DNA from: Bacteroidales bacterium
GTDB taxonomy: Bacteria; Bacteroidota; Bacteroidia; Bacteroidales; UBA932
Direction: 5' to 3'
Assembly: GCA_017461285.1 (NCBI GenBank)
Contig: JAFTYS010000013.1
Location: 1-23,407, forward strand
DNA length: 23,407 bases
Shown here: positions 6,387-7,427 of the stretch, piece by piece
Numbering within the stretch: position 1 is the stretch's first letter
How the letters are laid out: every line of letters begins with the position of its first letter
The notes under the pieces: model-generated
The model's input: the letters and a program-made list of their open reading frames with translations, nothing else
The model's database searches: none
What the model was told of the DNA's origin: nothing
Position numbers and translations under genes: made by a program

Positions 6387-6764
6387 GTCAAAGTTTTCTA
6401 TTTTCGATATGGAATATATCCTGGTCCCCGTCCTGATGTACCTGATGTCAAAGCAGCAGCACTCATCATGCTTTCCGCACTTGCGGAACGAGGTCATGAT
6501 GGTGGGCACGAATCCCATGGAAGCAAGGGTCATCAGATCGACGGAGTCCACATCGGCCTTGATCAGGTTCTCCAGCAGTTCATAATTCCGGAAAAGGACC
6601 TTCATGATCCTTCTCTTGAAGACTCTGCTCTTCTTCGCCCGTTCATTGAAATTCCTGGCACGGCATTCGTCGCAGCAGAATTTCTTGTCTGCACGTCCGT
6701 ACCTTATCTGATCGCCACATTCCAGACAGAGAGGAATATGTCTCGCCTGCTTTACATACACCAT
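6384..6764 (-). CDS. Small zinc-ribbon protein, Bacteroidota hypothetical
   Basis: This 126-residue protein begins MVYVKQARHIPLCLECGD. Cys13 and Cys16 pair with Cys31 and Cys34 (CDEC) to give a C-x2-C ... C-x2-C zinc ribbon or treble-clef knuckle. A basic stretch (RAKKSRVFKRR) follows. A second cysteine cluster, KCGKHDECCC, lies near the C-terminus. I recall similar short zinc-ribbon hypotheticals in Bacteroidota but know no function; nucleic-acid binding is a guess from the zinc knuckle plus basic helix. An ATG at 6815 would add 17 residues, but that start lies upstream of the only promoter-like box and the added residues contain no domain. The gene faces away from the SSB-like gene across a repeat-rich intergenic region. 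Confidence 0.65.
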   Translation of the reverse strand: MVYVKQARHIPLCLECGDQIRYGRADKKFCCDECRARNFNERAKKSRVFKRRIMKVLFRNYELLENLIKADVDSVDLMTLASMGFVPTIMTSFRKCGKHDECCCFDIRYIRTGTRIYSISKIENFD

Positions 6765-6785: not shown

Positions 6786-6793
6786 CAAATATC
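6786..6793 (-). promoter_or_regulatory. Weak -7-like box for the zinc-ribbon gene
   Basis: The minus strand reads GATATTTG, one mismatch from TAnnTTTG, 21 bases before the ATG at 6764. It supports the downstream start, but a single-mismatch 8-mer is weak evidence. Confidence 0.3.
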
Positions 6794-6852
6794 TGCCGCA
6801 AGACGGAGATTTCAAACACCCGGAACGATGTATTTCCGTTTCTTATCGAATG

Positions 6853-6957
6853 TTTTTCCGTTTTTTATTCCCGACTCGATGATAAAATAAATCTTTGTGC
6901 CATAAAATAAATCTTTGCATCATAAGAAAAGTGACATGATCATAAAAAACGGAAAAA
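6853..6957. repeat. 16-bp perfect inverted repeat with 73-base spacer
   Basis: TTTTTCCGTTTTTTAT at 6853-6868 is the exact reverse complement of ATAAAAAACGGAAAAA at 6942-6957. The right arm overlaps the left arm of a second dyad (6938-6949), so in RNA only one of the two pairings could form at a time. Confidence 0.7.
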
Positions 6958-6971
6958 TCTTTTTTATGATC
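6938..6971. repeat. 12-bp perfect dyad upstream of the SSB-like gene promoter
   Basis: GATCATAAAAAA (6938-6949) and TTTTTTATGATC (6960-6971) are exact reverse complements separated by ten bases (6950-6959). As DNA this is a good operator shape. As RNA it is an AT-only hairpin. Confidence 0.7.
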
Positions 6972-6984
6972 GGACGAAAACCTA

Positions 6985-7014
6985 TTGGACTGACGCGGAT
7001 TCTGCCTTACTTTG
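6985..7014 (+). promoter_or_regulatory. Promoter of the SSB-like gene
   Basis: TTG at 6985-6987, a 19-base spacer and TTACTTTG at 7007-7014 fit the Bacteroidota consensus with one mismatch. The predicted leader is about 70 bases. The A-tract array lies immediately upstream. Confidence 0.55.
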
Positions 7015-7078
7015 GAACCAACATATCGAGTGCGCATAAGATGTGGGTAAAAATCTAAAAATCAATCAACAGACTAAA

Positions 7079-7085: not shown

Positions 7086-7091
7086 AATCTT

Positions 7092-7427
7092 ATGGAACAC
7101 ATCAACAAGATCGAGCTGCAGGGCCGCGTAGGCACCTTCAGGACAAACATCGTAGGAGACAACATGGTGGCAAACTTCTCCATGGTCACGGAATATCTGT
7201 ACAAGACCCGTGACGGAGGAGCCGCAAACGAAACGACATGGCATCAGGTCACGGCATGGGAAGGAAGGGATATGCCGGACCTCACAAAGATCGCCAAGGG
7301 CACGCCCGTCCATGTGACAGGACGTCTGAGGACATTCAAGTACACGAACTCGGAAGGCGTTGAAAAGCAGCTGTATGAGGTCGTGGCATACAAGATCAGG
7401 ATCCTGACCGAAGAAGAAGCGGCCTGA
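7092..7427 (+). CDS. ssb: Short single-stranded DNA-binding (SSB-like) OB-fold protein
   Basis: At 111 residues this is essentially one OB fold: NKIELQGRVGTFRTNIVGDN, FSMVTEYLYK, TTWHQVTAWEG, and the GTPVHVTGRLRTFKYTNSEG segment typical of SSB. Replicative SSBs normally carry a long flexible linker ending in an acidic tip that recruits partners. This protein stops at RILTEEEAA and lacks both. It is therefore likely an accessory or regulated SSB paralogue rather than the main replication protein, although the family call itself is solid. It has its own promoter and a Shine-Dalgarno-like site, and is followed by a GC-rich inverted repeat. Confidence 0.8.
   Translation: MEHINKIELQGRVGTFRTNIVGDNMVANFSMVTEYLYKTRDGGAANETTWHQVTAWEGRDMPDLTKIAKGTPVHVTGRLRTFKYTNSEGVEKQLYEVVAYKIRILTEEEAA

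What the first reader, a model, noticed from the sequence alone, without database searches (positions are those of the whole stretch)
6831..6971. Seven A-tract motifs phased at about 20 bases upstream of an SSB-like gene
ATAAAA-type motifs occur at 6882, 6902, 6922 and 6942 with an exact 20-base period, flanked by inverted copies at about 6839, 6861 and 6960. Two helical turns per step puts every motif on the same face of the DNA. This is the arrangement expected for intrinsically bent DNA or for cooperative binding of a dimeric repressor. It sits directly upstream of a consensus promoter and between two divergent genes, one of which encodes a zinc-ribbon protein that could be the binder.
Basis: partly seen in the sequence, partly recalled or inferred. 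Interest (0 to 1): 0.7.

Follow-up and report, generated by a model that had tools for sequence, protein, structure and literature searches.

The report
Activator sites controlling DNA-uptake genes
The spaced A-rich motifs upstream of this single-stranded-DNA-binding gene look like docking sites for an unknown gene activator that also sits, at fixed distances, in front of other genes for taking up and processing foreign DNA, which points to a competence switch in uncultured gut bacteria.

Summary
The seven motifs are real (four ATAA cores exactly 20 apart; 0 of 20,000 shuffles). Bent DNA is not supported, and the exact 20-base period is local. What is conserved across 25 related intergenic regions is a 16-nt unit, TAAAAAANRGAAAAA, in direct pairs 22 or 19 nt apart, at a fixed helical position from a Bacteroidota -7 box (TAnnTTTG). 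A matrix trained only on these regions finds the unit upstream of dprA (7 of 7 near genomes), comM (5 of 6) and a membrane AraC-type regulator gene (7 of 7), but not comEC (0 of 7), and of comF in 2 of 6. comEA, radC, PD-(D/E)XK nucleases, a secreted nuclease and fimbrillin-like genes carry it too. Two geometries recur: unit start 71 nt (or 60, 82) before the G of the box, or the reversed unit 22 nt before the box, as in class I and class II activator sites. Best reading: operator array of a DNA-uptake (competence) regulon in Bacteroidales, probably Candidatus Cryptobacteroides, with the membrane AraC-type protein, whose gene carries the same operator, as candidate activator. Binding, induction and transformation are untested.

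The parts
6387..6764 (-). Conserved four-cysteine (zinc-ribbon-like) protein gene, divergent from ssb; one predicted target of the array
   Evidence: ORF; homologs; next to ssb in relatives; no Pfam family at E<=0.001
6786..6793 (-). Probable -7 box of the zinc-ribbon gene (GATATTTG on the - strand)
   Evidence: 60 nt from the unit start to its G in 16 of 25 regions (value 61 there counted to the next base)
6831..6846 (-). Type-1 unit, proximal to the zinc-ribbon promoter (score 16.2)
6853..6868 (-). Type-1 unit, distal partner, 22 nt from the proximal one (score 18.6)
   Evidence: spacing 22 in 16 of 17 such pairs
6882..6897 (+). Type-2 unit ATAAAATAAATCTTTG (role unknown)
   Evidence: similar units at comM and fimbrillin-like loci of G001
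6902..6917 (+). Second type-2 unit, 20 nt on
6922..6937 (+). Degenerate unit ATAAGAAAAGTGACAT, 20 nt before the ssb unit
6942..6957 (+). Type-1 unit of the ssb promoter; its first base is 72 nt before the G of the -7 box
6960..6971 (-). Inverted partner TTTTTTATGATC, making an AT-rich palindrome with 6938-6949
7007..7014 (+). ssb -7 box TTACTTTG (Bacteroidota sigma-A type)
   Evidence: 65-67 nt from the proximal unit start to TACTTTG in 24 of 25 regions
7035..7042 (+). 5' arm CATAAGAT of a leader helix that would pair with the ssb start codon
7087..7094 (+). 3' arm ATCTTATG, includes the ssb ATG
7092..7427 (+). ssb-like gene (111 aa)
   Evidence: PF00436

Best explanation
The array is a set of binding sites for a transcriptional activator. 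A 16-nt unit (TAAAAAANRGAAAAA), often as a direct pair 19 or 22 nt apart, is held at a fixed helical position upstream of a -7 box without a clear -33 element. Upright, its start lies 60, 71 or 82 nt before the G of the -7 box (class I). Reversed, it lies 22 nt before the box (class II). In the window it would drive ssb and the divergent zinc-ribbon gene. The same module stands before dprA, comM, comEA, radC, PD-(D/E)XK nucleases, fimbrillin-like genes and a membrane-embedded AraC-type regulator gene. I infer that this defines a DNA-uptake (competence) regulon and that the AraC-type protein is its autoregulated activator. Shown: the sequence, its conservation, spacing, geometry and gene set. 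Inferred: binding, activation, the identity of the activator, and that the cells transform.
For: Held-out matrix test: dprA 7 of 7, comM 5 of 6, AraC gene 7 of 7, comEC 0 of 7, comF 2 of 6 near genomes; 9 of 240 G001 genes (6 loci) reach 13 bits, and these include dprA and comM. Geometry: in 102 units outside the ssb region TTTG falls at exactly 71 in 21, against a null maximum averaging 5.4 and never above 10 in 2,000 trials. In one genome alone, so without orthologs, 9 of 29 G001 units sit at exactly 71 (null maximum at most 6 in 5,000 trials) and 6 of 28 in G022 (null reached 6 in 0.0004). Same-strand neighbours of at least 15 bits within 60 nt are spaced only 19 (16) or 22 (11). ssb: 24 of 25 within 65-67 nt. 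comM: reversed unit with gap 22 in 8 of 12 genomes that carry one. Genome-wide module pattern: 59 matches against 6 reversed controls in seven near genomes. Per-gene table. The AraC gene lies behind the same YitT-family gene in the 12 genomes inspected. In Riemerella, DprA and a helix-hairpin-helix protein are essential for transformation and YifB/ComM mutants are reduced (PMC8459023, passages).
Against: comEC, the uptake channel, lacks the unit (0 of 7 near, 1 of 21 other genomes), and comF has it in 2 of 6. Outside the near clade the matrix finds it at dprA in 2 of 18 and at comM in 7 of 18 genomes, although these species have relatives of both proteins. Not all targets are competence genes: ychF, nucleases, a transposase and lipoproteins are included. 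RhuM/ORF6N genes have units but no TTTG at the expected distances. 54 of 121 units have no TTTG at the listed forward distances, some of them because they are reversed or distal sites. At ychF the unit at 71 is the farthest of three, and nearer ones lie at other distances. The G027 dprA units have no matching box. With two mismatches allowed the bare motif is no commoner between genes than its reversed control. No expression, binding or transformation data exist.
Confidence: 0.72

Rival explanations
1. Activator operator as above, but the binder is another protein, for example the zinc-ribbon protein encoded next to it, with the AraC-type gene only a target.
For: The zinc-ribbon gene sits divergently next to ssb in 24 of 27 named loci (the other 3 are cut off by the contig end), is itself a predicted target, and has a basic stretch after its cysteines.
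Against: No recognised DNA-binding fold. The AraC-type protein has a standard HTH_18 domain, though only at 33.7 bits against a cut-off of 33.6, and direct pairs about two helical turns apart suit that family (recalled).
Confidence: 0.3
2. Repressor operator: a dimeric repressor binds cooperatively between the divergent genes.
For: Array lies between divergent promoters; inverted partner at 6960-6971.
Against: The upright units do not overlap the -7 box or start; their position is fixed 60-82 nt upstream in steps of about 11 nt, as expected for activators.
Confidence: 0.08
3. The A/T-rich units are parts of bidirectional intrinsic terminators.
For: In several targets (radC, AraC gene, dprA) the spacer holds a strong hairpin next to the unit.
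Against: The ssb/zinc-ribbon region is divergent, so no terminator is needed, and its spacer folds weakly (-5.0 kcal/mol). Terminators do not explain the fixed 71-nt and 22-nt distances or pairs at 19/22.
Confidence: 0.06
4. A dispersed mobile repeat such as a BrickBuilt-type MITE that happens to lie here.
For: Six further places in G001 share modules with the window, and units recur in tandem.
Against: Spacing is 19/22, not 23. The unit is kept at orthologous promoters across species and keeps its distance to the comM box although the upstream neighbour differs between G001/G022 and G008/G025/G033 (read by eye; gap).
Confidence: 0.03
5. SOS (LexA-like) operator: the gene set reflects DNA damage, not uptake.
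For: ssb and radC are SOS genes in some Bacteroidetes (PMC8565304, passages).
Against: The published boxes CTAA-N5-TTAG and GGA-N5-TCC are absent from all 25 ssb regions; GGA-N5-TCC does occur in 2 of 25 dprA, 4 of 24 comM and 2 of 12 AraC upstream regions, about as often as at comEC (3 of 28). comM and comEA are not usual SOS genes (recalled). recA, dinB and umuDC promoters were not examined.
Confidence: 0.06

Closest known systems
TfoS of Vibrio (membrane-bound AraC-family competence regulator)
   Same: Membrane protein of the AraC family acting above competence genes (PMC7564644, passages).
   Different: TfoS has a periplasmic sensor domain related to hybrid two-component proteins and acts through an sRNA and TfoX (same passages). 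The candidate here has several hydrophobic segments up to about residue 216, then an HTH, no recognised sensor domain, and is proposed to act directly on the uptake genes.
ToxT-type AraC regulators and their A/T-tract sites
   Same: All 3 solved-structure sequences found by the family profile are this regulator, over its DNA-binding part (profile positions 297-355; the name ToxT and its T-rich repeated sites are recalled).
   Different: ToxT is soluble and controls a different gene set (recalled); similarity covers only the DNA-binding domain.
Class I / class II activator promoters (CRP, MarA/Rob)
   Same: Fixed helical-phase positions upstream of the box and a second position next to it with reversed orientation, as for MarA-type regulators (recalled).
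   Different: Different sequence, Bacteroidota -7 box, pair spacings of 19 and 22.
Sxy/CRP-S, ComK, ComX/cin-box competence regulons
   Same: One short motif upstream of ssb, dprA and comM/radC-type genes (recalled for those systems).
   Different: Motif and candidate regulator look unrelated; comEC is not included here.
BrickBuilt MITE of Porphyromonas gingivalis
   Same: Intergenic tandem repeats in a Bacteroidales genome (PMC4596501, passages).
   Different: BrickBuilt has 23-nt repeats and terminal inverted repeats like those of IS5-family elements.
Bacteroidetes SOS operators
   Same: Predicted to regulate ssb and radC in some species (PMC8565304, passages).
   Different: Palindromes CTAA-N5-TTAG or GGA-N5-TCC, absent from the 25 ssb regions.

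Membership tests
Activator (class I/II) operator | Fixed distance to the core promoter in helical steps | tested here: met
   Peaks at 60, 71/72 and 81-83; single-genome test at 71; 22-nt gap for the reversed unit
Activator (class I/II) operator | Weak or missing -33 element at target promoters | tested here: inconclusive
   TTG in the -33 region in 1 of 25 units with d 71/72; no comparison with other promoters was made
Activator (class I/II) operator | Protein binding and activation | not testable with these tools
   needs bench work
Competence regulon | Shared site upstream of several transformation genes | tested here: met
   ssb, dprA, comM, comEA, radC
Competence regulon | Site upstream of the channel gene comEC | tested here: not met
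   0 of 7 near genomes, 1 of 21 others
Competence regulon | Cells take up DNA | not testable with these tools
   metagenome-assembled genomes only
AraC-family regulator (candidate binder) | HTH_18 DNA-binding domain | tested here: met
   33.7 bits against cut-off 33.6; solved AraC-family domain match E 2.2e-6
AraC-family regulator (candidate binder) | Binds the unit | not testable with these tools
   inferred from the unit in front of its own gene only
TfoS | Periplasmic sensor domain | tested here: not met
   Nothing but AraC-type matches by Pfam or NCBIfam; residues 1-216 are mostly hydrophobic segments in a simple hydropathy plot
Intrinsically bent DNA | Curvature above other AT-rich promoters | tested here: not met
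   1.107 against AT-matched median 1.140; 64% of 78 at or above (wedge parameters recalled)
Bacteroidetes SOS operator | CTAA-N5-TTAG or GGA-N5-TCC | tested here: not met
   0 of 25 ssb regions
BrickBuilt MITE | 23-nt tandem repeats | tested here: not met
   type-1 spacings 19 and 22; type-2 spacing 20 in the window
BrickBuilt MITE | Terminal inverted repeats with target duplication | not tested
   not searched

The most novel reading that the evidence does not exclude
A membrane-embedded AraC-type protein is the competence master activator of this Bacteroidales clade, and its regulon names the missing outer parts of Bacteroidota DNA uptake: fimbrillin-like and DUF4493/DUF6359 lipoproteins and an outer-membrane-like protein would form the DNA-capturing surface apparatus, together with a secreted nuclease and PD-(D/E)XK nucleases.
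Probability: 0.3. Interest if true: 0.88.

Novelty: new variant of a known kind. Interest (0 to 1): 0.72.

Why it matters
The control of DNA uptake in Bacteroidota is poorly known (recalled), and the rows listed by my literature searches (one search found no paper) show no competence regulon or master regulator for the phylum; papers outside the held library or below the listed rows were not seen. A fixed, readable promoter module lets the regulon be listed from sequence alone in uncultured gut bacteria, names a testable regulator, and nominates unknown surface proteins as uptake parts.

Tried and rejected
Bent DNA: curvature ordinary. Exact 20-base period as the conserved feature: rejected. 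Terminator, MITE and SOS readings: see rivals. A loose tandem pattern (TTTCYNTTT twice, gap 7-14) was enriched only in a few near genomes and about equal to control elsewhere. The bare motif with two mismatches shows no clear excess. A conserved element before comEC resembles type-2 units but does not match the trained matrix. The role of type-2 units is unresolved. Type-1 singletons beside GTTGTTTTA hairpins were first set aside as terminators, then kept because they also lie 71 nt from a box. Rfam: no match in the window at gathering scores. Structure prediction of the AraC-type and zinc-ribbon proteins could not be run.

Selection to disclose. The seven near genomes (G001, G022, G008, G025, G027, G033, G030) were picked for closeness and visible arrays; counts for the other genomes are given beside them. 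The matrix test used 25 of 29 dprA loci, 24 of 30 ComM-family loci, 28 of 30 comEC loci, 8 of 12 listed comF-like loci and 12 of 30 AraC loci; the rest were partial, weak paralog matches or, for AraC, not chosen. Of 30 loci, 27 were used and 3 distant ones (L323-L325) dropped; of the 27, 3 were cut off before ssb. comEA second units score 14.3, below the 15-bit cut used for spacings; their spacing is 20. Orthologous promoters are not independent observations (one search gives single-genome tests), and tested species share their ssb region with the training set. Box positions at several nuclease genes are TTTG only, without the TA. Three of the seven nuclease genes in that table (L255, L257, L261) were assigned by their look, not by a family search.

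Full report
WHAT WAS CHECKED. The window is a Bacteroidales chromosome; its own assembly is not held and the nearest held genome, G001, shares 31% of its sampled 31-mers. Contig lengths identify G001's ssb contig with JAFQAT010000003.1, a goat-cecum Bacteroidales MAG. Two of the 27 related named loci used carry the name Candidatus Cryptobacteroides, so that genus is probable, not proven. The reported motifs are there, with exact spacing, and are far beyond chance. They lie between a divergent four-cysteine protein gene and an SSB-fold gene.

FIRST CLUE. A DNA search of G001 with only the window's intergenic region found the orthologous region (81% identity) and six other places. Two of the six lie next to dprA and comM, and another next to a secreted nuclease (families). 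In 397 kb of G001 (20 stretches) the type-1 motif with at most one mismatch occurred 10 times between genes and once inside, against 1 and 0 for its reversed control; with two mismatches it was 17 and 5 against 14 and 6. Genome-wide counts against the reversed control were 29 to 6 (G001), 40 to 7 (G022), 17 to 9 (G008) and 36 to 20 (G033).

CONSERVATION. From named genomes, 24 of 27 loci have ssb divergently next to the zinc-ribbon gene; three contigs end too early. A 16-column matrix fitted by EM, started from the window's own unit, to these 24 regions and the window has the core TAAAAAANRGAAAAA. Two units pointing at the zinc-ribbon gene are 22 nt apart in 16 of 17 pairs and 21 in one. The unit nearest ssb begins 65 (16), 66 (7) or 67 (1) nt before TACTTTG in 24 of 25 regions; the exception is 86. 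On the zinc-ribbon side the value is 61 in 16, 62 in one, 72-73 in two, 82-83 in four, one misplaced box (103) and one without a box. The exact 20-nt chain is limited to the window and, in shorter form, its two nearest relatives.

HELD-OUT TEST. The matrix, trained on ssb regions only, was run on 300 nt upstream of other genes. Scores of at least 13 bits: dprA 7 of 7 near genomes and 2 of 18 others; comM 5 of 6 and 7 of 18; membrane AraC gene 7 of 7 and 1 of 5; comF 2 of 6 and 1 of 2; comEC 0 of 7 and 1 of 21. Of 240 G001 genes, 9 reach 13 bits, at 6 loci: comM, dprA, the ychF/secreted-nuclease pair, a lipoprotein with its divergent neighbour, a weaker divergent pair in L084, and one in L085.

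GEOMETRY. For 127 units of at least 15 bits, the distance from unit start to the G of TA-N1-2-TTTG in the unit's own direction peaks at 71 (22 cases), with 72 (5) and 70 (2); there is no such peak in the other direction. Counting any TTTG for 121 units gives 60 (10), 71 (25), 72 (7), 81 (8), 82 (12), 83 (4) and 90 (7), against a mean of 1.8 per position; in the other direction the one clear peak, 45 (11), is the reversed geometry described below. Leaving out ssb/zinc-ribbon units, 71 still has 21 of 102 units; in 2,000 trials with random offsets the highest count at any position averaged 5.4 and never exceeded 10. Because orthologs inflate such counts, I repeated it in single genomes: 9 of 29 G001 units fall at exactly 71 (null never above 6 in 5,000 trials) and 6 of 28 G022 units (null reached 6 in a fraction of 0.0004). 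Same-strand neighbours of at least 15 bits within 60 nt are spaced 19 (16) or 22 (11) and nothing else. A genome pattern joining box and unit gives 59 matches against 6 reversed controls in seven near genomes (13-0, 11-1, 6-1, 7-0, 6-1, 6-1, 10-2); some of the 59 will be chance. G010 has 6 to 0; the other seven genus genomes total 16 to 14 and the five outgroups 56 to 39. The reversed unit at comM leaves exactly 22 nt to an 8-mer ending TTTG in 8 of 12 genomes with a unit of at least 11 bits, among them all five near genomes that have one. The DUF4493 lipoprotein gene shows the same 22 in four of four genomes, and the secreted nuclease in two of two, though in G022 that box lies about 310 nt from the annotated start. 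The -7 box of Bacteroidota sigma-A, TAnnTTTG, spans -12 to -5 (PMC9723704, passages). The upright unit therefore centres near -58, -69 or -80, and the reversed one near -43 (my arithmetic).

TARGETS. Geometry by gene: ssb 71-72; zinc-ribbon gene 60; AraC gene 70-71 in the seven near genomes (G033 by a 13.3-bit unit); radC 71 in three genomes; comEA 70 in three (by the second unit in two), while G033 has a unit but no TTTG; ychF 71 in two, by the farthest of three units; FimA-like 71 in two; outer-membrane-like gene 71 in G001, G022 and G008; dprA 82 in G001, G022 and G008, 71 in G030, 60 or 61 in G025 and G033, none in G027; PD-(D/E)XK nucleases 60-61 or 71 in six of seven. RhuM/ORF6N genes (four) have units without a matching box. 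Family support: HHH_3, RadC, PDDEXK_2 (four of the seven tested), Exo_endo_phos_3, DUF4493/DUF6359, FimA-like, Y1_Tnp.

CANDIDATE ACTIVATOR. The AraC gene encodes about 370 residues with hydrophobic segments to about residue 216 and a C-terminal HTH_18. Matches were found in 29 of 30 genus genomes, many over the HTH part only; the 12 inspected all lie directly behind the same gene, a YitT-family gene in G001. Its promoter carries one or two units in all seven near genomes. The family profile hits one regulator, ToxT, among solved structures. This is a site-based inference; binding is not shown.

MECHANISM (inferred). A membrane signal would activate the AraC-type protein, which raises its own level and, bound to unit pairs on one face of the helix, recruits polymerase. 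Hairpins seen in some spacers look like terminators of upstream genes tucked into a spacer of fixed length. Products would handle incoming single-stranded DNA (SSB, DprA, ComM, ComEA, RadC) and surface or nuclease functions. In Riemerella, DprA, ComEC, ComF, RecA and a helix-hairpin-helix protein are essential for transformation and YifB/ComM mutants are reduced (PMC8459023, passages).

LIMITS. All evidence is from sequence, in incomplete MAGs. comEC is not a target. The gene set mixes uptake, nuclease and unknown surface genes, so a wider horizontal-gene-transfer or stress role remains open.

Noticed in passing
window 7035-7042 and 7087-7094: ssb leader: CATAAGAT can pair with ATCTTATG over the start codon; better than shuffles (p<0.05) in 16 of 25 species, with a compensating change in L307 (CATTATGG/TCATAATG) and a longer helix in L308. 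Possible translational control.
   Followed up: partly
window 6882-6917: Type-2 units ATAAAATAAATCTTTG recur at comM and fimbrillin-like loci; in G022 comM two of them form a 44-nt palindrome (read by eye). Role unknown.
   Followed up: no
L186 (G022), L237, L232 and L238 (G001), L265 (G008): A dispersed hairpin of the form GTTGTTTTAnnnTAAAACAAC between genes, in several cases inside the 48-nt spacer.
   Followed up: no
comEC upstream regions, e.g. L157, L166, L170, L176: Conserved element around TTTGCAAAGTTATAAAATWAATCGCTACTTTAGCAAAAA before comEC in the near species.
   Followed up: no
L070 1530-2521: A Y1/IS200-like transposase gene carries the unit at 71 nt from its box.
   Followed up: partly
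L254, L259: ORF6N and RhuM proteins near units match PADLOC candidate defence families PDC-S05.
   Followed up: no
L232 2485-2557: A module with unit, hairpin and box at 71 nt but no convincing gene found behind it; possible small RNA.
   Followed up: no
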